Assembly: GCF_003387075.1 (NCBI RefSeq)
Contig: NZ_QUMQ01000001.1
Location: forward strand, 1,860,001-1,924,000
Direction of reading: 5' to 3'
Length of the DNA: 64,000 bases
From: Asanoa ferruginea
Lineage (GTDB): Bacteria; Actinomycetota; Actinomycetes; Mycobacteriales; Micromonosporaceae
The notes beneath the pieces are model-generated. The model did not search any database. It was not told the DNA's origin and was given only the letters and a program-made list of their open reading frames with translations. Shown piece after piece: positions 42,907 through 54,801 of the stretch (within the stretch, counting starts at the first letter, position 1; every line of letters begins with the position of its first letter). A program made the translations under genes and the position numbers.

Positions 42907-43817
42907 ACCCGTTTCTCGTTCCCGGTTGCGTCGACGCGCGGACTCCGCTCAACCCCGGCGTGCACGGAACCCACGAGGATTACGCCGACGTCGATCACAC
43001 TGAGCGCCAGTTCAGCGCTTTCCAGGCCGACTTCCAGGGTGGCGACGGAGTCCTACAAGACGGCCGGCTGGTGGTCGTCAGCGGGCCTTATGGCAGCGGC
43101 AAGACGGCGCTCGTCAACCGCTGTGTGAAATGGCTCAGCAGCGCGTCAGGCGAACGCCATCCGGTCGTGGTCGATCTCCGGCGCGACAGGTTGGACCGCG
43201 GCGAGGTCGCCGACCGGATCAAGTTCATCGCGGGCCGGTTGGTCGACGAGCTACGCACCCGCCGGCTCCTGGAGACCGCCGGCGACCTGGCGCAGCGGCT
43301 CGAAGAGCCCGACCGGATGTTCCCGATCCTCAGCCAGGTGCTCGGCCCGAGCACGTTCCTGGTGGTCCTGCTGCCGCCCTCCGGCGACCTGGTCAGCGAG
43401 CTGATCAAATACGCCCGCTTCGCCCGCGCCAAGCTGCTGTTCTTCGCCGAGACCGCCTATTGGAGCAGCCTGCGCGAACGCCGGGCGGAGTTCCACTCGG
43501 CCGGTGGCTCGCCGCCGCTGTTCCTGGAGCTGGGGCCGCTCGCCGAAAGCGACGGAGACACCTTCTGGGACTTCCGGCTCGAGCGCTTCCTGGAATACGG
43601 GAGCTGGCCACACGGCGACGCACCGCCCCAGGTCGCTCCGGAGAAGCTGAAGAGCCTGGTCAGCCAGCGTCCGATGTCGATCGGCGAGCTCCAGCTCGTG
43701 CTGCACGCGGTCTGGGAACTGCTGTGCGCCGAGCCCGAGCAGCCGGAAATGATCTCCGACGAGCACTTCTGGCGGGCGTACGTCCGGCTCTACGCATCCG
43801 GGACTGGTGACCGATGA
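42903..43817 (+). CDS. P-loop NTPase, unknown family
   Basis: 304 residues. Walker A is VVSGPYGSGKTALVNRCV (about 58-75). A likely Walker B-type strand is FLVVLLPPSGD, which lacks the usual Asp-Glu pair, so catalysis may be altered. The N-terminal stretch has FLVPGCVDARTPLNPGVHG and DVDHTERQF, hinting at a binding site for a partner. Starts and stops overlap both neighbours (42903-42906 and 43814-43817). Confidence 0.65.
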   Translation: MNPFLVPGCVDARTPLNPGVHGTHEDYADVDHTERQFSAFQADFQGGDGVLQDGRLVVVSGPYGSGKTALVNRCVKWLSSASGERHPVVVDLRRDRLDRGEVADRIKFIAGRLVDELRTRRLLETAGDLAQRLEEPDRMFPILSQVLGPSTFLVVLLPPSGDLVSELIKYARFARAKLLFFAETAYWSSLRERRAEFHSAGGSPPLFLELGPLAESDGDTFWDFRLERFLEYGSWPHGDAPPQVAPEKLKSLVSQRPMSIGELQLVLHAVWELLCAEPEQPEMISDEHFWRAYVRLYASGTGDR

Positions 43818-46057
43818 CGACACCTCAGGCTGGGTTCGCCAACCCGTTCCCGTCCACCGCCAACGCCTCCGGCCAGCCCGTCGACCCCGATCTGGCCGTC
43901 CACACGCCGGCCGTGACCACCGCGGCCGCGCTGTTCGACGCCTTCCTCCGGGGCGGCCAGCAAGGCGAGGTGCTCGCGGTCATCGGCGGTGCCGGCACCG
44001 GCAAGACCTACCTGTCGGGCGTGCTGCGCGGGATGGCCGATCAGGCCCAACCACCGGTGCGCTCGTTCTACGCGCAGGTCTCCGCGACCTCGTTCCAGGG
44101 CGTGCTCGGTTCGTTCGTCCGGGCCGTCAAACGCGACGAGTCGACCGTGCGTGCCGGGGTGCGGCACCTCTTCGCCCAGGTGGTCGCCGACGCCCTTGGC
44201 GACTCCGACCTCGGCCGGCATCTCGGCCCGGAGCTGCGCGGCGGCAAGCTCGACCCGGTCACCCTGGTGCAGCGGATGCGCCTCGACCGGGGCGCCTACC
44301 TGGAGACCCTGACCACCCGCCTGGAGCAGCTCACCGACCACCCGGGGATCGCGACCGCGCTCACGCTGTTGCTGCGGCCGGGTTTCGACCACGCGGTCTG
44401 GACCTGGCTGGCCGGCGGCGAGCCGGCCGGCGTGCTGCGCGACCGGCGGATCGCCGCCGCGTTGGAGAGCGACGCCGACGCGCTCCGGGCGATGGGCGCG
44501 CTGATCTCGGTGATCTGTGCGCCCGGCCGCAAGATCCTGCTCACCTTCGACGAGCTGGAGCGCACGTTCCGGGCCGACCGGCCGCTGACCGAGGAGACCA
44601 CGACCGCGCTGCGCCGGTTCCTGGCCAGCGCGGTCAACGCCGGCGCGTTCGTGGTGCTCTCCGGGTTCACGTCGTTCCTGGAAAACGTGCCCGAAGACGT
44701 CCGTTACCGGATCGGCCCGACCATCCAGACCTCGCCGTTCCAGCCCGAAGACATCCAGCAACTGGTCAACACGAGCCGCGAAGCCGTGCGCGACCAGGCC
44801 ACCGCGCCGCCGCCGTTCAGCCCGAAGGTGGTCGAGCACCTTGCCGACCTGACGGCAGGCGTACCCCGGTTGATCGTGGATCTGTCTCATCGCCTGGTGC
44901 GGGCGACCCGGCCGGCCACCACGACCATCGACGAGGCCGCGATCGAGACCGCGGCACAGGCCTACGTGGAGGAACGGCACGGCGCCTATTTCGCGGAAGA
45001 GGTCCGCCGCGCGCTCACCGAGCAGGGTTGGAAGGTCGAGCCCAACCGCTATGTCGGGCTGAGCCAGGACTCCCATGTGGACTTCTGGGTCGCCGACACC
45101 GATGGTGGCGAGGGCTGCGCCATCCTGGTCGCCGAAAACGTCATCGGCGCGGCCGACGTCAACCGGCAGCGCGACCGGATCTTCACGGTCAAGGAGGGCC
45201 TGCCCACCGGCGAGATCCTGCTGGTGGTCAAGGGATTCCTGGCCCAGGGCGCCGAACGCGAGCTGACCGACCTGACCGGGCGGCGGCCGCTGGTCGCGCA
45301 GCCGGGCCGGATCGGGCGCGACCTCGGCCGCACCGTGCGCGCGATCCTCGCCTCCTTCGAGGCACACGACCCGGTCGAGCGGGTCGGCAACCGGCTCGAC
45401 CGCTTGGGTCAACACCAGGCAACCATGCACGGGTACGTCGCACAGCTCGCACTGTCGATGAACGAGTTGCGCACCGCCAACGAGAAGCACCTCGCCGAGA
45501 TCATCGGACGGCTCCAGCCACCGGAGCCGCAGGGTGCCCAGGGGACGCCCGCGCACCTGCCGCCGGCGGTCGAGGCGATGCTCGACGACGCGCAGCACGT
45601 GCTCGCCGAGTTGCTCGGCCGGGTCGACACGCTGTTCACCGACGCGCTGCACGCCGGGCCCGACCGGGCCCGCGACACCCGGATGGCGCTGCGGGCCCGA
45701 CTACGGCAGCGCAACACCGCGGCCGCGGCCGGCGTCGTGGCGCTGCTGCAACGGCTGATCGCGGCGTTCCGCGAAGAACTGCGGCTCTGGTATGCCGAGG
45801 AGTCGCCGGCCGGAGCGGCCGGGCGCGACACCCGCACGCTCGACGCGCTCTGCCAGACCTACTCGGTGGCCTGCGAATATCTCCCGCTCTTCCAACTCGA
45901 CGAGTTGCGCCACGTCACCGCGCGGTTCGCCGACGTCGACGACCTCCCGACCGAGCGCACCACCGAGATCAGGGCGTCGGAGCTGTTCGGCAACCTCGCC
46001 GGCCGGGTGCAGACCGAGCTGACCGGGCCGACCGCGATGCGCCGCCGGGCCACCTAG
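43814..46057 (+). CDS. AAA-type ATPase with possible nuclease-like segment
   Basis: 747 residues. Walker A VIGGAGTGKTYLSGVL (about 54-70), Walker B ILLTFDELERTF (about 240-252). After the ATPase core, about 390-480 reads as a mixed alpha/beta region (DSHVDFWVADTDGGEGCAIL followed by VAENVIGAADV) with spaced acidic residues, which recalls PD-(D/E)xK endonuclease folds, though the usual lysine is replaced by Asn (AEN). The C-terminal third is helical. Related to large ATPases of the conflict/NLR type in layout only. Its end overlaps the convergent gene at 46054. Confidence 0.6.
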   Translation: MTTPQAGFANPFPSTANASGQPVDPDLAVHTPAVTTAAALFDAFLRGGQQGEVLAVIGGAGTGKTYLSGVLRGMADQAQPPVRSFYAQVSATSFQGVLGSFVRAVKRDESTVRAGVRHLFAQVVADALGDSDLGRHLGPELRGGKLDPVTLVQRMRLDRGAYLETLTTRLEQLTDHPGIATALTLLLRPGFDHAVWTWLAGGEPAGVLRDRRIAAALESDADALRAMGALISVICAPGRKILLTFDELERTFRADRPLTEETTTALRRFLASAVNAGAFVVLSGFTSFLENVPEDVRYRIGPTIQTSPFQPEDIQQLVNTSREAVRDQATAPPPFSPKVVEHLADLTAGVPRLIVDLSHRLVRATRPATTTIDEAAIETAAQAYVEERHGAYFAEEVRRALTEQGWKVEPNRYVGLSQDSHVDFWVADTDGGEGCAILVAENVIGAADVNRQRDRIFTVKEGLPTGEILLVVKGFLAQGAERELTDLTGRRPLVAQPGRIGRDLGRTVRAILASFEAHDPVERVGNRLDRLGQHQATMHGYVAQLALSMNELRTANEKHLAEIIGRLQPPEPQGAQGTPAHLPPAVEAMLDDAQHVLAELLGRVDTLFTDALHAGPDRARDTRMALRARLRQRNTAAAAGVVALLQRLIAAFREELRLWYAEESPAGAAGRDTRTLDALCQTYSVACEYLPLFQLDELRHVTARFADVDDLPTERTTEIRASELFGNLAGRVQTELTGPTAMRRRAT

Positions 46058-47007
46058 CCGGCCTCGTCCAGGCGGCCGCAGAGTTCGGCGAAGCGGTCCT
46101 CGACGCTGGCCACGTAGGCCTGCACCAGGGTCACGCCGACCACCTGGCGGCCGCCGCCGAGCCAGCGGGTGATCACGGCGCCGTCTTCGACGTCGAGCAC
46201 CACCGCCCGGGCCGCCCGGCCGAGCACCGGGTAGACCAGCCGGCGCAGGTCGCGCAGGTCGCCGTCGAGATCGGTGTGGAAACCCCAGTAGACCCGGCGC
46301 AGCCGGGCGGGCGAGGTGTCGCCGTGGGTCTCCGGGAGGTCGAGGCCGCCGAAGCAGTCGACCGCGAACGCGGTGCCGTCGTTGCTCAGATAGAGCACGT
46401 ATTGCAGCCGCTCGTCGATCGCCTCCCGGCAGATCGACAGCAGCCGGGCGTGGGCGTTGCCGGTGATGACCGGGCTGCCGGTCGGTGGTGGCAGCACCGC
46501 GCTGGGCGCGATCGGCTGGAAGCCACCCGGGTTCTGGTCGCTGAGCTCGAACAGCTCGCGCGCCTCGGCGGCCAGCCCAGCCAGCGCCCGGTCGGCCTCC
46601 TGCACCTCGGGTGCCACCGCGAGGCTGGGTTCGGCGGGCAGGTGCGGGTCGCGCAGGCAGAAACCGACGAGGTGGCCGCGGCGCGGGATCGTGTAGGCCA
46701 GCGCGGCACCGGCCGGCGTCTCCAGGACGAGCCGCACCAGCGCGCCGGTGCGCGCCACCTGGAGCTTGTCGTGTAGGTCGAGGCAGACCCCCACGACGCC
46801 CTGCGCGGCGAGCCGGGCCTGCTTGCGCTGCTGCTGGTCGGTGTCGGTCTGGTCGATCGAGAAGGTCCGGTCGCCGTCGACGATCAGGCTCAGATGCGTC
46901 AGGTTGGGGATCCGCCGGGCCAGGTCGGCCGCCGAGAACAGCAGGTCGTGTTGTTCGTCGCTGGGCGGTGGGTCGATGTGGACACTGTCGAAGGCCGACC
47001 GGGTCAC
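46054..47007 (-). CDS. Hypothetical protein downstream of FxsT-like gene
   Basis: 317 residues, no signal peptide or membrane helix and no recognised domain. Composition is soluble mixed alpha/beta with short motifs VVGVCLDLHDKLQVARTG, GHLVGFCLRDPHLP and RLLSICREAIDERLQYV. The GTG at 47007 is preferred because GGAGG lies seven bases upstream; GTG 47013, which overlaps the upstream stop (GTGA), is an alternative. It is translationally linked to the FxsT-like gene, so it probably belongs to the same peptide system. Confidence 0.55.
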   Translation of the reverse strand: MTRSAFDSVHIDPPPSDEQHDLLFSAADLARRIPNLTHLSLIVDGDRTFSIDQTDTDQQQRKQARLAAQGVVGVCLDLHDKLQVARTGALVRLVLETPAGAALAYTIPRRGHLVGFCLRDPHLPAEPSLAVAPEVQEADRALAGLAAEARELFELSDQNPGGFQPIAPSAVLPPPTGSPVITGNAHARLLSICREAIDERLQYVLYLSNDGTAFAVDCFGGLDLPETHGDTSPARLRRVYWGFHTDLDGDLRDLRRLVYPVLGRAARAVVLDVEDGAVITRWLGGGRQVVGVTLVQAYVASVEDRFAELCGRLDEAG

Positions 47008-47009
47008 CG

Positions 47010-50000
47010 TCACACCTCCGGAACGTCGATGTCGATCAGCAGCGAGTGGGGCACCGGACGCCGCCCGCCGCTGAGATATTCGGCCGCCACCCGGGTGTAG
47101 GGGTGCCCGGCGCCGAGGAACTCTTCGCACAGCCCGAGGGTGTCGTGCTGCGGACCCTGATCCGACATGCCGGCCAGGTTGAGCCGGGCCGCGAGCACCC
47201 AGGGATGCACCTCGCCGAGCCGGCCGGCCAGGCTTTCGGCCGCCCGGCCGGCCTGGGCCAGCGCCGCGTCGGCGCGGCCCGCGCTCCACAGCACCAGGGC
47301 CAGGTTGGCCCGGCTGGCCTCCACGAAGGGGTGACCCTCGACCAGCGCGGCGGTGTAGAGCTCGAGGCACTGCCGCGCGAGCTCGAGGGCGTCTTCCCAC
47401 TCGGCGAGCCGGAACAGGTCCATCGCCAGGCTGAGCATCCCAGCCTGGGTGCGCGGGTGGTCGAAGCCGAACGTGTGCCGATAGCCGTTGACCGCGTCGG
47501 TGTTGAGCTGGCGGGCGACCGCGTAACGGCCCAGCCGGCGCTCGGCCACCGCCAGGTGACCCTTGATCCGCAGCACGTCGGGGTGGCTGGCCGACTGGAA
47601 CTTGCGGATCCGGTCGAGCGCCGCGTAGAGCCGGCGGCTGGCCTCGCCGTAGCGGCCCAGCTCGCGCTGGAAGCCGGCCGCCGCGGCCATCGACCACCAG
47701 GTCAGCGGGTCGTCGGGGCCGAACAGCGCCTCCCGGCGGGTCAACGTGTCCTGCTCGTGGAAGTAGGCGCGTTCGGGGTAGCCGGCCAGGAAGTAGGAGT
47801 TGGCCAGGTTGTGGCTGGCCTGGAGGGTCTGCGGGTGGTCCTCGCCGAACAGGTCGCGGAACTGGTGCCAGGTGCCCCGGTCCTGGACCAGCGCCTCGGC
47901 GAACTGGCCCAGCCCGCGCAGGTCGCCACTCATGCCGCGGCGGGCGGTGAGCACCCGCACCGAGCGGGCGCCCAGGTCTTTGAGCGCGACGCTGAGCAGC
48001 AACTCGTCGGCGGCCAGCGACTCGCGCGGCCGGCCCATCTGCCGTTGCAGGTCGGCTCGGTAGGTGGCGAGCTGGATGGTGAGCGACTCGCGCGGCGCGT
48101 CGCCGGCCGTCCAGGCGTCGAGGGCGGTCTCCACCTGGGCCAGCCGCTGGGCGCGGACGACGGCGTCGTCGTCGTCGGAGGTCCAGCGCAGTTGGGCCAG
48201 GACCCAGCGGCGCACCGCCCACTCGGGCGAGACGAGCGCGCCGGAGGGCACGAGGTGGTGCCGCAACTCGGCGAGCACCTGACCGTCTTGCAACCGGCCG
48301 GCGGCGAACCCGGCCAGGCCGCGGCGCACCTGGTCGCGGCGGCGGTCGTGCTCTTCGGCCGGGATCGCCTTACGCACCATCGTGCGGACCAGCCCGTGCA
48401 TCTGTAGGTCGGAGTCGGCTCCCCAGAAGACCGAGAAGATCTCCAACCGTTGGCCGAGCCAGATCACCTGGTCGAGGTCGAACGGCTCGTCGAGGAGGGC
48501 CCGCGGCTCGATGCCGGCGGCGTCGGCCAACTGCTCGACCATGGCCGGCCAGCGCAGCAGCGACAGGCTCACCCTGGCCGGGTCGAGGAAGCAGCACAGC
48601 TCGGCGAGGCGGTGGGTGAGCCGGCCGAGCGGGTGCTTGTCGAGCTGGTCGAGGGTCATGCCGACGATCGCCGCGAACGAGGCACCGCCGGCGTCGGCGA
48701 GCCGGTCGCGGATCTCGTCGGCCGCCCAGGACGCGGCCTCCGACGCCGAACTGCCGGCGCGCAACTCGGTCTCCCCGGCGAGTTGGCGGACGAGTGCGCC
48801 GGCGAGGTGCAGGCTCAGCGGTGCCCGGCCGGTCGTCTCGATCAGCTTCTCGCCCTCGACGCCGGGCAGCGCCGGGGCGTAGCCGCGCAGGATGGCGACC
48901 GCCTCGGCGGCGGTCAGCGGCTTGACGTGGACCCGCCGGTTGCGGGTCGCCCAGAGGTCGGGCAGGGTGTCGGCGGCCTGCGGCTGCGCGGTGATGACGA
49001 TGTGCCCGAAGCCCTCCCGGGGCAACAGCTCGACCAGCGTGTCGACATCGTCGGCGGCGTCGTAGACGAGCAGGGTGCGGCCCGGCCGGGCGGCGCGGAG
49101 GGCGTCGAAGGTGGCCGCGACCATGTCGGCCGACGGCTCGACGCCCATCACGTAGCCGAGGCGGGTGAGGCTGGCCCGGACCGTCTGCTCGTCGCCGGCC
49201 GGGATCCACCAGACCACGTCGTAGTCGTAGGCGAAGCGGTAGGCGTAGGCCTGCGCGATCGCGCTCTTGCCGACGCCCGGCTCGCCGGCCAGGATCACCA
49301 CGCCGACGGTCTCCGACTCGACCAGCGCCGACCGGATGTCTTCGAGGTAGGCGTCTCGGCCGACCATCCGGGTGCTGGCCCGGGGCACGGAGAAGAGCTT
49401 CTCGCCGGCCGTCGCCTCGGCCCCGGGGAACCGTTGGCGCGACTCGCGGCCGGCGACCTCGGCGACCCGGTCGCCCATGCCGAACGCGGCCAGCAGCCGC
49501 TTGAGGGCGTCGGCCTCCAGCGGGCCGGTCAGGTCGACCGCCCGCACCGTCGGGAAGGCGTCGTGGCGGCTGGGCTCGACGTTGAGCAGGACCGTCTCGG
49601 CTCCGGGCGCCATCCGGAGGACGTCGGTGACCTCGGCCGCGACCGGCGCGGCGGCGAACGCCGACGAGCCGATCAGCACCAGCAACGACCGCTCGGGACC
49701 GTCGAGCCAGTGCTGCTCGGTGTTCCAGGTGCCGACGGTGAACCCGAGTTGGCGTAGCTGCTCGCCCACCCAGTCGGCCCACGGCCGGTCGGACGGCGCG
49801 TAGGCCAGCACGGCGCGGGTGTCGACGTCGCGCGCGTCGCCGGTCAGGCTGCGCCGGTAGCGCCGGCGGACCGGATCGGGGATCCGCGGCAGGCTGCGCA
49901 CCTCGCCGTTGGTGATGAACCAGACCAGGTCGGCGAACGCTTCGAACGGGCCGGCCGTGCGGGGCGACGTCGGCGGATCGTCGAGCAGGATGCTCAGCGC

Positions 50001-50717
50001 CGAGGCGGCGGGCGACAACTCCGGCACCTTGACGACGCGCTCGGCGAATGCGGCGCCGAGCCGGCTGAACGCCTGCCGGACCTCGCCGATGGTCTGGCTG
50101 GCGCGGGGCAGCACCCGCGCGTCGAACGGCACGGCGGCCGCCGCGGTGCGGCGGGGCCGGCTCGCCGCGTCGCGGATGCTCAACGCCGCTTTCACCGCGT
50201 CGCGGATCGGCGCGTATTGCGGCTGGAAACAGATCACCACCGCGTCGGTGAGCCCGGCGATCAGGTTGGTCTGCGCCTCGGTCGCGGCCGGCAGGCCGAC
50301 CAGGATCACGTCGTATCTGGTGCGGCGCAGCGCGGCGCGGATCTCACCACTCGGCACGCTTTCCAGGTCATTGCCGCGGAGCACCGAGAACGGCCGGCTT
50401 GAACCGAGCAGATCGAGGTTGCCGCGGCCGACCGGAAGGATGTATCTGCACAGTGACAGCGGCTTCTCGATGAATTCGGTGACCAGCCGCGCGGCCTCGG
50501 TGTCGAGCAGGTCGCTGGGGTCGCTCACGCTCATCAGAAATGGATCAAGAAAGGCGCGGACCAACTCGCCGTCGGCACCTGTGTCAATCACGAGCACCCG
50601 CTTGTCGACGTGGCACAACGCGACAGCGGTGTTGGCGACTATCCGGGTAATGCCGACCTCGGGACTCGACGCCGCGAAGGTGACGATCGTGGGCGCCGCT
50701 GAGCCTCGGTCCGTCAT
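47010..50717 (-). CDS. FxSxx-COOH-system TPR protein (FxsT-like), degenerate ParA domain
   Basis: 1235 residues. Residues 1-250 resemble the ParA/CpaE-type SIMIBI domain of FxsT (IVTFAASSPEVGITRIVAN, KRVLVIDTGADGELVRAFL) but the Walker motif lacks the usual K-G-G-V-G-[RK]-T, so nucleotide binding may be lost. About 300-370 is TIR-like (AVLAYAPSDRPWADWVGEQL), shortened and without an obvious catalytic Glu. 450-850 is an NB-ARC-type ATPase (Walker A GEPGVGKSA at 478-486; LLVYDAADD at about 549-557). 850-1220 is tetratricopeptide repeats (SHNLANSYFLAGYPERAYF, RIKGHLAVAERRLGRYAVA, MLSLAMDLFRLAEWEDALE). Known FxsT proteins accompany FxSxx-COOH ribosomal peptides with a radical-SAM maturase; none is seen here. 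First stop overlaps the next gene. Confidence 0.75.
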   Translation of the reverse strand: MTDRGSAAPTIVTFAASSPEVGITRIVANTAVALCHVDKRVLVIDTGADGELVRAFLDPFLMSVSDPSDLLDTEAARLVTEFIEKPLSLCRYILPVGRGNLDLLGSSRPFSVLRGNDLESVPSGEIRAALRRTRYDVILVGLPAATEAQTNLIAGLTDAVVICFQPQYAPIRDAVKAALSIRDAASRPRRTAAAAVPFDARVLPRASQTIGEVRQAFSRLGAAFAERVVKVPELSPAASALSILLDDPPTSPRTAGPFEAFADLVWFITNGEVRSLPRIPDPVRRRYRRSLTGDARDVDTRAVLAYAPSDRPWADWVGEQLRQLGFTVGTWNTEQHWLDGPERSLLVLIGSSAFAAAPVAAEVTDVLRMAPGAETVLLNVEPSRHDAFPTVRAVDLTGPLEADALKRLLAAFGMGDRVAEVAGRESRQRFPGAEATAGEKLFSVPRASTRMVGRDAYLEDIRSALVESETVGVVILAGEPGVGKSAIAQAYAYRFAYDYDVVWWIPAGDEQTVRASLTRLGYVMGVEPSADMVAATFDALRAARPGRTLLVYDAADDVDTLVELLPREGFGHIVITAQPQAADTLPDLWATRNRRVHVKPLTAAEAVAILRGYAPALPGVEGEKLIETTGRAPLSLHLAGALVRQLAGETELRAGSSASEAASWAADEIRDRLADAGGASFAAIVGMTLDQLDKHPLGRLTHRLAELCCFLDPARVSLSLLRWPAMVEQLADAAGIEPRALLDEPFDLDQVIWLGQRLEIFSVFWGADSDLQMHGLVRTMVRKAIPAEEHDRRRDQVRRGLAGFAAGRLQDGQVLAELRHHLVPSGALVSPEWAVRRWVLAQLRWTSDDDDAVVRAQRLAQVETALDAWTAGDAPRESLTIQLATYRADLQRQMGRPRESLAADELLLSVALKDLGARSVRVLTARRGMSGDLRGLGQFAEALVQDRGTWHQFRDLFGEDHPQTLQASHNLANSYFLAGYPERAYFHEQDTLTRREALFGPDDPLTWWSMAAAAGFQRELGRYGEASRRLYAALDRIRKFQSASHPDVLRIKGHLAVAERRLGRYAVARQLNTDAVNGYRHTFGFDHPRTQAGMLSLAMDLFRLAEWEDALELARQCLELYTAALVEGHPFVEASRANLALVLWSAGRADAALAQAGRAAESLAGRLGEVHPWVLAARLNLAGMSDQGPQHDTLGLCEEFLGAGHPYTRVAAEYLSGGRRPVPHSLLIDIDVPEV

Positions 50718-50733
50718 CGACTGTCCACCTCGG

Positions 50734-50937
50734 TCAGGGAGATTCGGGGTCTTCCATTCTCCCGGCGACCATCATGTTCTGGAACCCGTAAAAAGCGGGT
50801 GACCCTCCGTCGTTCTCCTGAATTAGCCGACGTAGCGACGACAGCATCGCCGTTTCCGGCAAATCATCAAGACCTTCGAGTCCCCTGCCCTGGAGGTCTA
50901 GAAGATCCGAGATAAGATCGGCGTCCTCACCACCCAT
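50734..50937 (-). CDS. FxsA-like peptide with atypical core
   Basis: 67 residues from ATG 50937. Residues 6-40 read as an FxsA-type leader: ADLISDLLDLQGRGLEGLDD then LPETAMLSSLRRLIQE, i.e. the SDLxDLxGxxLxxL...LPETxxLxxxLRR pattern of FxSxx-COOH precursors. The tail is AFYGFQNMMVAGRMEDPESP, not the expected FxSxx end, and lies 10 residues beyond the aromatic cluster. Composition is less GC-rich than its neighbours. It is the first gene before the FxsT-like gene (16-base gap) and divergent from the HExxH gene. A TATGCT -10-like element at 50984-50989 and the lack of a ribosome-binding site for the longer start (ATG 50988) favour the shorter product. Confidence 0.65.
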   Translation of the reverse strand: MGGEDADLISDLLDLQGRGLEGLDDLPETAMLSSLRRLIQENDGGSPAFYGFQNMMVAGRMEDPESP

Positions 50938-51046
50938 ACACCGACCACCGCCTTCATCGCGCTCGATCAGGATGAACGGCGCCAGCATAGTCCAGTGATC
51001 GCGTGGCAACGGCACCCAGGACGCACCGCGGAGAGGCGATTCCGAC

Positions 51047-52321
51047 GTGGCGAATCCACCGACCCATCGCGTCAGCGCAGCGACCTTCGCCGCGATCTGC
51101 GGCGGTGGTGGCGGGCCGGCCACGATCCGCATGTTGCGGGCCGCGCAACGCAGTAAAACGATCTTGTCGATCGGTGCCGTCGTCGCGCTGGCGAAGGAAA
51201 CGAAACATCCTCGACGGGCATCGACTACCGACGCGTACGCGTTTCTGCGCGCGCTGAATCCCGAGGCGGTCGGCCAGGTCCTGGACTATCCATCGGTCGG
51301 CGCCTGGGCGCTGCGCACCGCACACGCCCTGCACCGCCGCGACCTGGCCGCCGCACAGCCCGAGTGGCTCGCGGCGATCGCCGCCGCCGCGGCCGTCCGC
51401 GCGCTGGCACCCGCACGCCTGCCCGTGCCACTGCAGGGCCGCGGCCACCTCGCGCTGCCCTCGCTCGGCGGGTGCGCGTCGCCGGACCCGTCGGCCCCGG
51501 TCGAGTTGGTCTCCGGCAGCGACGGCGCCGAGTTGGTCAGCGGCACCCGCCGGATCCAGGTCGGCGGTCCACAGTGGTCGCCGCTGCCGACGGTGCGGGC
51601 CGCACATCACGGGCTCGCCGTCGAGCTGCGCTTCGATCACCTCGACGGCGCGCCGGCACCCGGCGACGCCGACCGGCGCACGGCCGCGGTCTGGGAGCAC
51701 CGGGTCGCTCCCGCGTGGCGGGTGCTGGTCGACCGGCACCGGCCGGTCGCGGTCGAGTTCGCCGAGGCGATCTCGGTGCTGGCGCCGCTCGCGGACCCAC
51801 CGGCCGGCACCGTCAGCGCGACCGGCCGCCACGCGTTCGGCGCCATCGCGATGTCGACGCCCGCGACACCCCGCTCGGTCGCCGTGACGTTCGCCCACGA
51901 GTTGCAGCACGCCAAGCTGTCGGCGCTGATGGACCTGTTCCCGCTGGTGTCGGGCGACCCGGGCGGCCGGCACTACGCACCCTGGCGGCCCGACCCGCGG
52001 CCACTGATCGGCCTGGTCCACGGCGTCTACGCCCACCTGGCGATCGCCGACTTCTGGCGCCGCGAACTTGCCGCCACCGACGACGACCGGTCGCTCGCCG
52101 AGTTCGAATACGCCCGCTGGCGCGCCGCCGTGCACACCACCGCGACCCGCCTCGCCGCCGACGCCCGCCTCACCGACCTGGGCCAACGCCTGATCCACAG
52201 CGTGCTGTCGAAGGTCGCCGGCTGGCCCGAAGAGGTGCCGCCGGCGGCCGCCGCCCGAGCCCGGACGGCGGCCGACGAGCACCGCGACCGCTGGATCGCG
52301 GCACACGGCCCGATCTCTTAG
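51047..52321 (+). CDS. HExxH-motif peptide-modification protein (aKG-HExxH type)
   Basis: 424 residues. Zinc or iron-site motif HELQH at 284-288 (TFAHELQHAKLSALMD) with further His at HGVYAHLAIADFW (325, 330). The N-terminus (HRVSAATFAAICGG, TIRMLRAAQRSK) matches the leading part of the HEXXH-motif putative peptide-modification family, which in other systems is fused to or neighbours radical-SAM FxsB proteins and beta-hydroxylates the precursor peptide using 2-oxoglutarate. Standing alone here, divergent from the FxsA-like gene, it would act on that peptide. Starts with GTG; its end overlaps the telA-type gene. Confidence 0.72.
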   Translation: MANPPTHRVSAATFAAICGGGGGPATIRMLRAAQRSKTILSIGAVVALAKETKHPRRASTTDAYAFLRALNPEAVGQVLDYPSVGAWALRTAHALHRRDLAAAQPEWLAAIAAAAAVRALAPARLPVPLQGRGHLALPSLGGCASPDPSAPVELVSGSDGAELVSGTRRIQVGGPQWSPLPTVRAAHHGLAVELRFDHLDGAPAPGDADRRTAAVWEHRVAPAWRVLVDRHRPVAVEFAEAISVLAPLADPPAGTVSATGRHAFGAIAMSTPATPRSVAVTFAHELQHAKLSALMDLFPLVSGDPGGRHYAPWRPDPRPLIGLVHGVYAHLAIADFWRRELAATDDDRSLAEFEYARWRAAVHTTATRLAADARLTDLGQRLIHSVLSKVAGWPEEVPPAAAARARTAADEHRDRWIAAHGPIS

Positions 52322-53625
52322 GCGCGCACCTGCGTCGAGACCGGCGCCTGCTGGAGCACGGAAGCCGGCAGTTCGGGGCCGGCCGGCAGGGCCACCTGCT
52401 CCTTGGCCCGGGTGACCAGCTCGACGACCGTGCGGCTGAGCTGCTGCGCCGACTGCGACATCGACTCGTTGGCCGTCACGATCGCGGTGACCACCTCGGC
52501 CCGCTTGGCCTGGCCGTAGCGGACCGCCTCTTCGATGCCGCGCGCCTGCGCGTCGATCGACTCGGCGACCTCGAGGATCGTCTCGGGGCGGATCGTCGGC
52601 GTCTGGATCGTGCGGGCGATCTGCGGAATCGCCGTCTTCGACGCCCGGGCATAGGCGCTGAGCACGTCGTTGGCGCCGTCAGCGACCGCCTGCTGCATGT
52701 CGGCGGCCTGGTTGGCCTGGAGCAGCAGCGCCCACTGCGCGATGGTCAGCTTCATCGTCGGGATGGTCAGGTTCATCAGCAGCGCCAGCCGCTGGCCGAG
52801 CCCGTAGTTGAGGGTGCGGATGTTGCGTACCTGCGGCGAGGTCGACCAGGCGACGAACAGGCGCTGCTGGAACTCGTTGATCCGCACCTCGATCGCCTGG
52901 ATGAACTCGGTGATCCGGGAGAGCTGCTCCTCCTTCTCCCGGGCGTCGGGCGCGCCGGGCACCACGACGATCGCGTTGGCCGCCGCGACCGCCTCGTCGC
53001 GAACCAGTTCCATCACCGCGATCGCACCGATCAGCTGGGCGATCGCGCCTTCGTTGGCCTTGTAGAGCTCGTCGCAGAGCACCACGTTGCGCTTGAGCTG
53101 GAGCTGCTTGTCGCTGAGCTGCCCGGCCACCCGGTCGAGCTGCTGCTCGACGGTGCGCGCCTCTTCGAACAGCATCTCCAGCAGGTCGCGGCCCTTGCGG
53201 AACAGGCCTTTGATCGCGTCGGCGAACTTGTCGAACGTCTCCCGCACCCGCGGGTCGCTCGGGTCGTATTTGCGGCGGAAGGTGCGCATCCGGTCGTTGA
53301 GCTCGTGCATGATCGACGTCAGCTCGGGGATGTTGACCCGCCCGACCTCCCGGAAGATCCGGTTGACCTGGGTGTTGACCTGGTCGATCGCGGTGTTGCC
53401 AAACGTCGCGAGCTGGTCGGTGTTGGCCAGCATGGCCGGGAAGAGCTGCCGGGCGGCGGCGGTGGCCTGCTCGCGCTGCGCCGGCGTGAGCAACTCGACG
53501 CAGATGAGCTGCCGTTGCTGGGTGCCCACCAACACGCTCGACATGGCCGCGTCGGCGGGGCCGGCCGGCAGTGCCGCCGGACCGCCGACGATGCTGCCGA
53601 AGTCGATCTGCAGTCCGTCAGACAT
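52318..53625 (-). CDS. TelA-family toxic anion resistance protein
   Basis: 435 residues. All-helical, coiled-coil-rich protein: LLTPAQREQATAAARQLFP, IDQVNTQVNRIFREVGRV, FRRKYDPSDPRVRETFDK, and a central VEQQLDRVAGQLSDKQLQLK, as in TelA/KlaA (tellurite resistance) proteins. Linked operons with XpaC-like, VWA and solute-binding proteins are typical of actinobacterial stress systems. It is the last gene of an operon starting at 57070, 27 bases after the binding-protein gene. Confidence 0.88.
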   Translation of the reverse strand: MSDGLQIDFGSIVGGPAALPAGPADAAMSSVLVGTQQRQLICVELLTPAQREQATAAARQLFPAMLANTDQLATFGNTAIDQVNTQVNRIFREVGRVNIPELTSIMHELNDRMRTFRRKYDPSDPRVRETFDKFADAIKGLFRKGRDLLEMLFEEARTVEQQLDRVAGQLSDKQLQLKRNVVLCDELYKANEGAIAQLIGAIAVMELVRDEAVAAANAIVVVPGAPDAREKEEQLSRITEFIQAIEVRINEFQQRLFVAWSTSPQVRNIRTLNYGLGQRLALLMNLTIPTMKLTIAQWALLLQANQAADMQQAVADGANDVLSAYARASKTAIPQIARTIQTPTIRPETILEVAESIDAQARGIEEAVRYGQAKRAEVVTAIVTANESMSQSAQQLSRTVVELVTRAKEQVALPAGPELPASVLQQAPVSTQVRA

Positions 53626-53652
53626 GATCAGAACCTTTCGGGTGTACGGGGA

Positions 53653-54801
53653 TCAGGCGCACTTGGTGGCGTCTTGAACGCAGGCGAGCAGGGCGAGGGT
53701 GACCTCGGCGTTGGGTGGTGGCGTGGTGCGGACCTGCTCGGCCAGCGCCAGGTCGGGGAAGTCGGCCGGGTTGGCCAGGCCGACCTCGATGGCCGAGCGG
53801 AACCCGTAGGTCTGCCACGCCAGGGTCTGGATCTCCGGGTCCTTCATCGCGTCGATGAACCGGGCGGCGCCGGCATTGAGCGCGAGGATCGGGTGGTCGC
53901 TGTAGATGGTCGGCTCCGGGTAGAGGATCCGGATGTTCTTCAACAGCGCCGACCGGTTGTCGCCGGCCAGCGCGGCCTGCTGGATGAGCTGGTTCTCGTA
54001 GCCGGCGTAGAGCGGCGCCTTGAACTCGCCACCCTGGGTCAGCCACTCCCGGAACCCGTTGTCAGACGTGCGGGCCTGTAGGCCCTGCGCGTCGTAGAGC
54101 GCCCGCATGGTCGGCAGCGCCTTGCGGGCCTGCGCCAGGCTCGGCGCCGCGAACGCGTCCGAAGTGGACAGGATCGACAATTGGAGCTGAGCCATCGTCA
54201 GCCCGCTGTTGGACTTGGCCGGGTCGGTGCTGGCGATCGCCACCGGGCCGCGCAGGTCGACCGCGCCCAGCGCCTGCCACGTCTTCTTGGCCAGCACGTT
54301 GTCGAGCAGCAGCGCCTTGACGTCGACCAGGTAGTAGCGGTCGTCGCGCTTCTCGACCAGCTTCGCCTTGATCAGCGCGTCGGAGCCGCGCGGGCCGGCG
54401 TAGATGACCTCGGGCGACTGGAGCACGTTCTCGGCGCGATAGTCCGGGAACGCGCCGCTGTGCGTACTCTCGAAAACGCTCTGCGCACTGGCACTTGACG
54501 GCCAGAGGCAGTCGACCTTGCGGTTGCGCAACTCGTCGGCGGAGAGCCGCACCTGGTCGTAGGAGCCCAGCGGGGTGAAGCGCACGGTCAGGCCGTATTT
54601 GTCGTGCAGCAGCGCCTTCACGTCGGGGTCGGCCATCAGCTCCGACTTCTCGCTGCCGCCGATGCAACTGATGGTCAGCGCGTCGGTGCTGCCCGGCTCG
54701 GCCGGCGAGCCGGTCAGCTTCCGCACCACGAACGCGCCGCCCAGCAGCACGGCCAACACCGCGACCAGCCCGACGAGGAAGCGGGCGCTCGGCAGTCTCA
54801 C
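53653..54801 (-). CDS. Membrane-anchored solute-binding-like protein
   Basis: 382 residues. One N-terminal anchor helix (6-27, RFLVGLVAVLAVLLGGAF) without a lipobox; then a type-II periplasmic-binding fold (LTISCIGGSEKSELM, DCLWPSSASAQSVFES, IASTDPAKSNSGLTMA, PTIYSDHPILALNAG). Two Cys near the C-terminus (ALLACVQDATKCA). No ABC permease or ATPase is nearby, so it is likely a ligand sensor rather than part of a transporter. GTG start overlaps the XpaC-like stop (GTGA). Confidence 0.75.
   Translation of the reverse strand: MRLPSARFLVGLVAVLAVLLGGAFVVRKLTGSPAEPGSTDALTISCIGGSEKSELMADPDVKALLHDKYGLTVRFTPLGSYDQVRLSADELRNRKVDCLWPSSASAQSVFESTHSGAFPDYRAENVLQSPEVIYAGPRGSDALIKAKLVEKRDDRYYLVDVKALLLDNVLAKKTWQALGAVDLRGPVAIASTDPAKSNSGLTMAQLQLSILSTSDAFAAPSLAQARKALPTMRALYDAQGLQARTSDNGFREWLTQGGEFKAPLYAGYENQLIQQAALAGDNRSALLKNIRILYPEPTIYSDHPILALNAGAARFIDAMKDPEIQTLAWQTYGFRSAIEVGLANPADFPDLALAEQVRTTPPPNAEVTLALLACVQDATKCA

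What the first reader, a model, noticed from the sequence alone, without database searches (positions are those of the whole stretch)
46054..52321. Variant FxSxx-type peptide-modification locus without a radical-SAM enzyme
An FxsA-like peptide, an FxsT-like NB-ARC/TPR protein, an unknown protein and a divergent stand-alone HExxH peptide-modification protein sit together. Canonical FxSxx-COOH systems have a radical-SAM/SPASM maturase (FxsB), sometimes fused to the HExxH domain. Here that enzyme is absent from the whole window, so the peptide may be only hydroxylated, or matured by an enzyme encoded elsewhere. Seen: motifs and gene order. Known: family roles. Inferred: that these act as one system.
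Basis: partly seen in the sequence, partly recalled or inferred. Interest (0 to 1): 0.85.

Follow-up and report, generated by a model that had tools for sequence, protein, structure and literature searches.

The report
Peptide-modification cassette lacking its radical enzyme
A bacterium carries a small peptide, one iron-dependent peptide-oxidising enzyme and an immune-receptor-like sensor, but not the radical enzyme that often accompanies them; most relatives without that enzyme have asparagine instead of serine at the peptide's key position, which gives a concrete chemical prediction to test.

Summary
The locus is real and larger than reported: P-loop (STAND-like) ATPase, unknown protein, FxsT-type protein, FxsA-like peptide and an intact aKG-HExxH enzyme (43814-52321). 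The ATPase gene occurs in 46 of 354 family genomes; 45 of those loci have a readable peptide. In 24 FxsB sits between peptide and HExxH gene; in 21, window included, no radical-SAM gene was found nearby. The peptide differs accordingly: aromatic-x-Ser in 22 of 24 with FxsB, aromatic-x-Asn in 20 of 21 without. The window peptide reads FYGFQN plus 13 residues, so it is not FxSxx-COOH. FxsB was found nowhere in 14 of the 21 genomes; the window's genome has one 3.1 Mb away. Best reading: an FxsB-loss variant in which HExxH oxidises the core directly, probably at Asn. Caveats: the Ser/Asn split rests on 3-4 changes and is not statistically established; AmcB-type enzymes, whose peptide also has aromatic-x-Asn, are in all 14 FxsB-free genomes and could act in trans; FxN occurs with FxsB in three other loci; one FxN genome has no HExxH gene; the HExxH tree does not recover one FxsB-less group. 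Zincin-peptide systems without radical SAM (RxD, acidic) were already published: a new variant of a known kind.

The parts
43814..46057 (+). P-loop (STAND-like) ATPase, 747 aa, outermost conserved gene of the cassette
   Evidence: Weak NACHT/AAA matches below cut-offs; found in 46 of 354 family genomes, with the unknown gene nearby in the 45 loci that could be read
46054..47013 (-). Conserved protein of unknown function, 319 aa; low-confidence model shows two repeats of the order helix-strand-strand-helix-strand-strand-strand-helix
   Evidence: No significant Pfam match among 21 homologues, no NCBIfam match for the window copy, no significant PDB match with the profile; alignment; model mean pLDDT 46.9
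47010..50717 (-). FxsT-type protein, 1235 aa: ParA/MinD-like N-terminus (no canonical Walker A seen by eye), TIR-like region, NB-ARC/NACHT ATPase, C-terminal TPRs
   Evidence: NF040586 569 bits, MinD model TIGR01969 E 0.0021; TIR_2 at 304-409 and NACHT at 473-613 just below Pfam cut-offs, TPR_12 above; TPRs match kinesin light chain
50734..50937 (-). FxsA-like precursor peptide, 67 aa from the likely ATG, core FYGFQN and a 13-residue tail
   Evidence: TIGR04268 below cut-off; candidate starts; dN/dS about 0.14
50776..50784 (-). Aromatic-x-Asn (FQN) codons, at the place of FxS in FxsB-type loci
   Evidence: Peptides anchored on the core; DNA
51047..52321 (+). aKG-HExxH-type peptide-oxidising enzyme, 424 aa, divergent from the peptide gene
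   Evidence: TIGR04267 159 bits; PDB relatives 22nu/22ob (E 5e-33) and ChlH 8s5f (E 7.7e-5, residues 277-343 only)
51896..51910 (+). HELQH metal-binding motif (residues 284-288)
   Evidence: H284, E285, H288, W313, R314, R318 among 24 residues invariant in 41 cassette HExxH proteins, window included

Best explanation
It is an FxsB-loss variant of the actinobacterial FxsA/FxsT peptide cassette. SHOWN: gene order, absence of FxsB nearby, intact HExxH motif, and a conserved peptide core that is aromatic-x-Asn where FxsB-bearing sister loci have aromatic-x-Ser. INFERRED: FxsA is made as a leader-core precursor; the HExxH enzyme, an Fe(II)/2-oxoglutarate oxygenase by family, acts on the core without a prior cyclophane and oxidises it at the conserved Asn, most likely by beta-hydroxylation (+16 Da); the unconserved tail is trimmed or irrelevant; the modified peptide is a ligand for the TPR domain of the NLR-like FxsT protein, which with the ATPase and the unknown protein forms a sensing or response complex.
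For: ATPase gene in 46 of 354 family genomes. Among 45 readable loci, FxsB absent goes with [FW]xN in 20 of 21 and FxsB present with [FW]xS in 22 of 24; 0 of the 24 FxsB-bearing cassette loci of the family have FxN (Fisher p 6.6e-12, or 4.6e-10 with the two loci from outside the family, descent ignored). In the FxN class [YF]xx[FW]xN is kept while the tail varies from 7 to 38 residues. No FxsB at E 1e-30 in 14 of the 21 genomes, 7 of these 14 being one-contig assemblies. In 5 of 6 genomes examined the cassette's HExxH gene is the only TIGR04267 match. HExxH residues invariant in 41 of 41 compared. HExxH enzymes from clusters without radical SAM hydroxylate Gln (PMC12636437, introduction, one results section and discussion read) and Pro (PMC13060819, abstract and passages seen); for PesO, co-occurrence of the residue with the enzyme foretold its target.
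Against: The Ser/Asn split is few events: FxsB changes 3-4 times on FxsT trees, and the independent-pair tests have only 3 supported pairs, far from significance. On the HExxH tree the FxsB-less cassette loci do not form one group. FxN occurs with FxsB in L144 (same cassette, outside the family) and in L065 and L139 (other HExxH loci of the family). L060 and L145 lack FxsB without FxN. G328 keeps the FxN peptide but has no HExxH match in a one-contig genome. Aromatic-x-Asn is also a cyclophane motif of XncB/OscB (PMC11002830, passages), and AmcB-type enzymes are in the FxsB-free genomes. Asn is not among the HExxH targets named in the passages seen. No activity was tested.
Confidence: 0.5

Rival explanations
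1. The FxN core is cross-linked in trans by AmcB, the cyclophane-forming radical-SAM enzyme of another locus, and the HExxH enzyme then hydroxylates the product, as in ChlBH.
For: TIGR04261 matches (all below its cut-off) in 14 of 14 FxsB-free genomes, identified as AmcB by NF041718 in the 5 checked and in the window's genome. AmcA ends AWNHFENIPTFYNWNNRPR, with several aromatic-x-Asn motifs. XncB and OscB link Trp or Phe to Asn (PMC11002830). ChlBH needs a preinstalled cyclophane (PMC12636437).
Against: AmcB has its own precursor beside it in 6 of 6 loci examined, with an upstream sequence unlike FxsA's by eye; it is not linked to the cassette; radical-SAM/SPASM maturases are as a rule leader-dependent (recalled).
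Confidence: 0.17
2. In the window's own genome the FxsB of the second locus (3.1 Mb away) matures this peptide in trans.
For: FxsB 443 bits at C1:5037525-5038598. Five surveyed loci with FxS but no FxsB in the fetched stretch (L015, L115, L120, L133, L135) lie in genomes that have FxsB elsewhere; FxsB is common, 227 of 354.
Against: No FxsB found in 14 of 21 FxsB-less cassette genomes, including G088, the closest relative; MscB, of the FxsB family (assignment recalled), joins Phe to Ser, not Asn (PMC11002830).
Confidence: 0.08
3. The peptide part is decaying: FxsB was lost, and FxsA and HExxH are remnants beside a sensor that works without them.
For: G328 has no HExxH gene either; L060 and L145 lack both FxsB and the motif.
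Against: dN/dS about 0.14 on FxsA, a core kept across a deep clade, HExxH residues invariant in 41 of 41 compared.
Confidence: 0.1
4. The HExxH protein acts as a peptidase or oxidative cleavage enzyme that releases the core from its variable tail.
For: PosC/PflC cleave the backbone oxidatively at ARMD (PMC12636437); Kaur et al. took the zincin for a peptidase (PMC7159879, section 24); the tail after Asn is unconserved in length and sequence.
Against: The other HExxH members described in the papers seen hydroxylate; no shared cleavage motif follows Asn.
Confidence: 0.1

Closest known systems
FxSxx-COOH (FxsA/FxsB/FxsT) cyclophane RiPP systems
   Same: FxsT-type protein, FxsA-like leader, gene order, HExxH gene; sister loci carry FxsB between peptide and HExxH gene
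   Different: No FxsB; core aromatic-x-Asn in place of FxS; 13-residue tail instead of an FxSxx carboxy end
Actinobacterial standalone peptide-processing system with AP-ATPase and inactive MinD/ParA-like domain (Kaur et al. 2020, PMC7159879)
   Same: HExxH (zincin) gene, variable small peptide, AP-ATPase/TPR protein with ParA-like domain
   Different: The peptide types named there are FxSxx, RxD, acidic and FtsH-associated; 'FxN' does not occur in its main text (its source data were not seen)
Stand-alone aKG-HExxH hydroxylases PflC/PosC and PesO
   Same: HExxH enzyme acting on a precursor in a cluster without radical SAM
   Different: Those act on Gln or Pro and sit with MNIO enzymes; here the partner is an NLR-like protein and the conserved residue is Asn
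ChlBH/ChlH (radical SAM-HExxH; 8s5f)
   Same: Related by sequence over the HExxH region
   Different: ChlBH hydroxylates a preinstalled cyclophane (PMC12636437 introduction); here no radical-SAM gene is nearby
AmcA/AmcB multiple-cyclophane RiPP
   Same: Aromatic-x-Asn core motifs
   Different: Separate locus, other leader, has its own radical-SAM enzyme

Membership tests
FxSxx-COOH RiPP system | Precursor over the TIGR04268 cut-off with a C-terminal FxSxx | tested here: not met
   19.3 bits against 28; ends FQN plus 13 residues
FxSxx-COOH RiPP system | FxsB radical-SAM/SPASM maturase in the cluster | tested here: not met
   No PF04055 match in the window; the genome's only FxsB over cut-off is 3.1 Mb away
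FxSxx-COOH RiPP system | FxsT protein | tested here: met
   NF040586 569 bits, cut-off 300
aKG-HExxH-type peptide beta-hydroxylase (TIGR04267) | Over-cut-off match with intact HExxH | tested here: met
   159 bits against 40; HELQH
aKG-HExxH-type peptide beta-hydroxylase (TIGR04267) | Fe(II)/2-oxoglutarate-dependent hydroxylation | not testable with these tools
   Needs purified enzyme or co-expression
Standalone AP-ATPase/ParA peptide-processing system (PMC7159879) | Zincin gene, small peptide and AP-ATPase-TPR protein with a ParA-like domain | tested here: met
   the ParA-like match is weak (TIGR01969, E 0.0021)
Triceptide (three-residue cyclophane) | Ring-to-beta-carbon crosslink at aromatic-x-X | not testable with these tools
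   The motif is compatible with Asn, but no local radical-SAM gene was found
Known anti-phage defence systems (PADLOC) | Significant model match | tested here: not met
   Six window proteins scanned (not the peptide); best matches near E 0.007

The most novel reading that the evidence does not exclude
The HExxH enzyme has taken over FxsB's job: an Fe(IV)-oxo oxidant abstracts hydrogen from the Asn beta-carbon and the radical closes onto the aromatic ring two residues earlier, making the three-residue cyclophane (-2 Da) without any radical-SAM enzyme. Keeping the aromatic-x-Asn spacing after FxsB loss is what this would predict.
Probability: 0.08. Interest if true: 0.88.

Novelty: new variant of a known kind. 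Interest (0 to 1): 0.55.

Why it matters
The paired difference in maturase presence and core residue gives a direct prediction (Asn as target) for an uncharacterised HExxH subfamily. FxsB-bearing and FxsB-less sister cassettes are a natural comparison for what the cyclophane contributes to a peptide that appears tied to an NLR-like receptor.

Tried and rejected
Rejected: FxsB just outside the window; a missing or degenerate HExxH motif; FxsB in trans as a general answer (not found in 14 of 21 genomes; 7 of the 14 are multi-contig assemblies). TIGR04085 was tried as a general SPASM test over the 21 genomes (matches in 5) but it misses FxsB itself, so it proves little; TIGR04261 then showed a related radical-SAM enzyme, AmcB, after all, and my earlier thought that those genomes had no cyclophane enzyme was dropped. 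Positions separating FxN from FxS HExxH enzymes at 75% on both sides: one, residue 286 Leu/Ile. A Roadblock-like fold for the unknown protein is suspected from the order of secondary structure (that topology is recalled, not matched); the model has mean pLDDT 46.9 from two sequences, Pfam and PDB gave nothing significant, and no fold search could be run. The HExxH structure job never ran.

Rows dropped: L071 (contig ends in the ATPase gene), so 45 of 46 loci were counted. No HExxH match in L071, L083 or L098 (L098 is contig-limited), so HExxH was seen in 43 of 45. In the survey of 49 other HExxH loci no usable peptide was read in L016, L104, L116, L118, L126, L130, L140 or L137 (unreadable letters), and L131 was ambiguous. 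Core-residue labels for one search were set by eye. The survey loci follow similarity to the window enzyme and are not a random sample. One search compared 41 enzymes: 19 FxN and 22 FxS loci; L055, L060, L083 and L098 were left out.
Full report
WHAT IS THERE. The window (C1:1860001-1924000 of a 9.07-Mb one-contig genome) holds, in order, a P-loop ATPase (43814-46057, +), an unknown protein (46054-47013, -), an FxsT-type protein (47010-50717, -), an FxsA-like peptide (50734-50937, -) and a HExxH protein (51047-52321, +). The FxsT protein scores 569 bits on NF040586, the HExxH protein 159 bits on TIGR04267, and the peptide 19.3 bits on TIGR04268, below its cut-off of 28. The peptide ends FYGFQN-MMVAGRMEDPESP, so it is not FxSxx-COOH. 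No radical-SAM match lies in the window.

REAL GENE. Against the same-genus copy (G088) the peptide gene has dN 0.072 and dS 0.504.

CONSERVED CASSETTE. The ATPase gene was found in 46 of 354 genomes of the family, and in 2 genomes besides the window's own in a class sample of 394. In the 45 loci whose peptide could be read, the unknown gene, FxsT and FxsA recur beside it, and a HExxH gene in 43 (L071 is cut by its contig end, L098 is contig-limited, L083 has none). In 24 loci FxsB is present, between FxsA and the HExxH gene where both are held. In 21, window included, there is no FxsB match, and no frame over 200 aa with a radical-SAM cysteine motif in the stretches examined.

THE PEPTIDE DIFFERS WITH FxsB. 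With FxsB the core is aromatic-x-Ser in 22 of 24 loci (exceptions L055, FER, and L098), mostly followed by six residues. Without FxsB it is aromatic-x-Asn in 20 of 21 (exception L060), inside [YF]xx[FW]xN and followed by 7-38 unconserved residues. Fisher p is 6.6e-12, but this ignores descent. On FxsT trees 19 of the FxsB-less loci form one group: 3 changes of FxsB, support 95, or 4 changes with an outgroup and two loci from outside the family, support 82. The three outgroup rows come from loci with FxsB, so loss is the likelier direction, though the deep forks are open. On the HExxH tree (92 rows) the FxsB-less cassette loci are not one group, but those forks are unresolved. Only 3 supported independent pairs exist, so the covariation is striking but not statistically established. 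Outside the family L144 has FxsB with FQN, and L145 has neither FxsB nor FxN.

WHO MODIFIES IT. FxsB (E 1e-30 or better) is found somewhere in 7 of the 21 FxsB-less cassette genomes, the window's included, and in none of the other 14. In five of six of these 14 examined, the cassette's HExxH gene is the only TIGR04267 match; the sixth, G328, has none although its FxN peptide and the other cassette genes remain. All 14 have a TIGR04261 match below that model's cut-off; the five checked are AmcB, with AmcA beside them, as in the window's genome. AmcA has aromatic-x-Asn motifs, so AmcB in trans is the main rival. The window HExxH enzyme keeps the HExxH and PWRxDPRP motifs and matches solved relatives 22nu/22ob and, over a short stretch, ChlH 8s5f.

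LITERATURE. PMC12636437 (introduction, one results section and discussion read): HExxH enzymes are Fe/2-oxoglutarate oxygenases; ChlBH works on a preinstalled cyclophane; PflC and PosC hydroxylate Gln and cleave the backbone. PMC13060819 (abstract and passages): PesO hydroxylates a Pro that co-occurs with the enzyme; earlier targets are named as His, Asp, Phe and Gln. PMC11002830 (passages): MscB (IPR026335; that this is the FxsB family is recalled) links Phe to Ser; XncB and OscB link Trp or Phe to Asn. PMC7159879 (section 24 and passages) already describes zincin-peptide-AP-ATPase systems, radical SAM with FxSxx peptides, RxD and acidic types, and a standalone type with a ParA-like domain. 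'FxN' is not in its main text. No title or abstract opening listed by searches described an Asn type; only one search had a term aimed at it (hydroxyasparagine, 0 occurrences in the 6 papers listed). The Nature Chemistry paper on ChlBH was not held.

WIDER SURVEY. Of 49 other HExxH loci, 32 have no FxsB in the fetched stretch: 19 with [YF][NS][GP]-type cores (8 of them with NPQR), 4 with GPPGRVD, 5 with FxS, 4 without a readable peptide. HExxH cassettes without radical SAM are therefore common. Of the 17 with FxsB, 10 have Ser, 2 Asn (L065, L139), 1 is ambiguous and 4 unread.

FUNCTION. The FxsT TPRs match kinesin light chain TPRs (E 3.5e-15), domains that bind short peptides around an aromatic residue (recalled), so peptide sensing by FxsT is plausible but untested. 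No defence model matched well.

VERDICT. A new, Asn-type, FxsB-less variant of a known peptide cassette, with a testable chemistry prediction.

Noticed in passing
L047:5925-18898 (G000:C1, about 5.03-5.05 Mb): The window's genome has a second Fxs locus: FxsB, a separate HExxH gene, an FxsA ending SAFSSFVS and three FxsT-type genes.
   Followed up: partly
L115, L120, L133, L135 (also L015): FxSxx-type peptides (GFNSAL; L015 GFNSSI) beside HExxH genes, with no FxsB in the fetched stretch, contrary to the published rule that FxSxx goes with radical SAM; FxsB is elsewhere in all five genomes.
   Followed up: partly
L061-L064, L102, L103, L111, L125; L119, L132, L134, L138: FxsB-less HExxH loci whose peptides end in or near NPQR(L/V/I)D or GPPGRVD; probably the published RxD type (my inference).
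   Followed up: partly
L069:3003-5048 and L050:2150-3352 (minus strand): A number of relatives have an extra gene between the ATPase and the unknown gene, by eye a membrane antiporter-like protein (two looked at; no NCBIfam match for the L050 copy); the window lacks it.
   Followed up: partly
L083:7854-9873 (G328): An FxN cassette without a HExxH gene; an acyl-CoA dehydrogenase-like gene (by eye) follows instead.
   Followed up: partly
L010:717-2058: AmcB with AmcA beside a purM-like gene (by eye); the last 20 or so residues of AmcA are identical in the 6 genomes looked at.
   Followed up: partly
52318-54801: A TelA gene and a gene with no family match, by eye substrate-binding-protein-like, follow the HExxH gene; tblastn found neither in 23 related stretches, so they are probably not part of the cassette.
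   Followed up: partly
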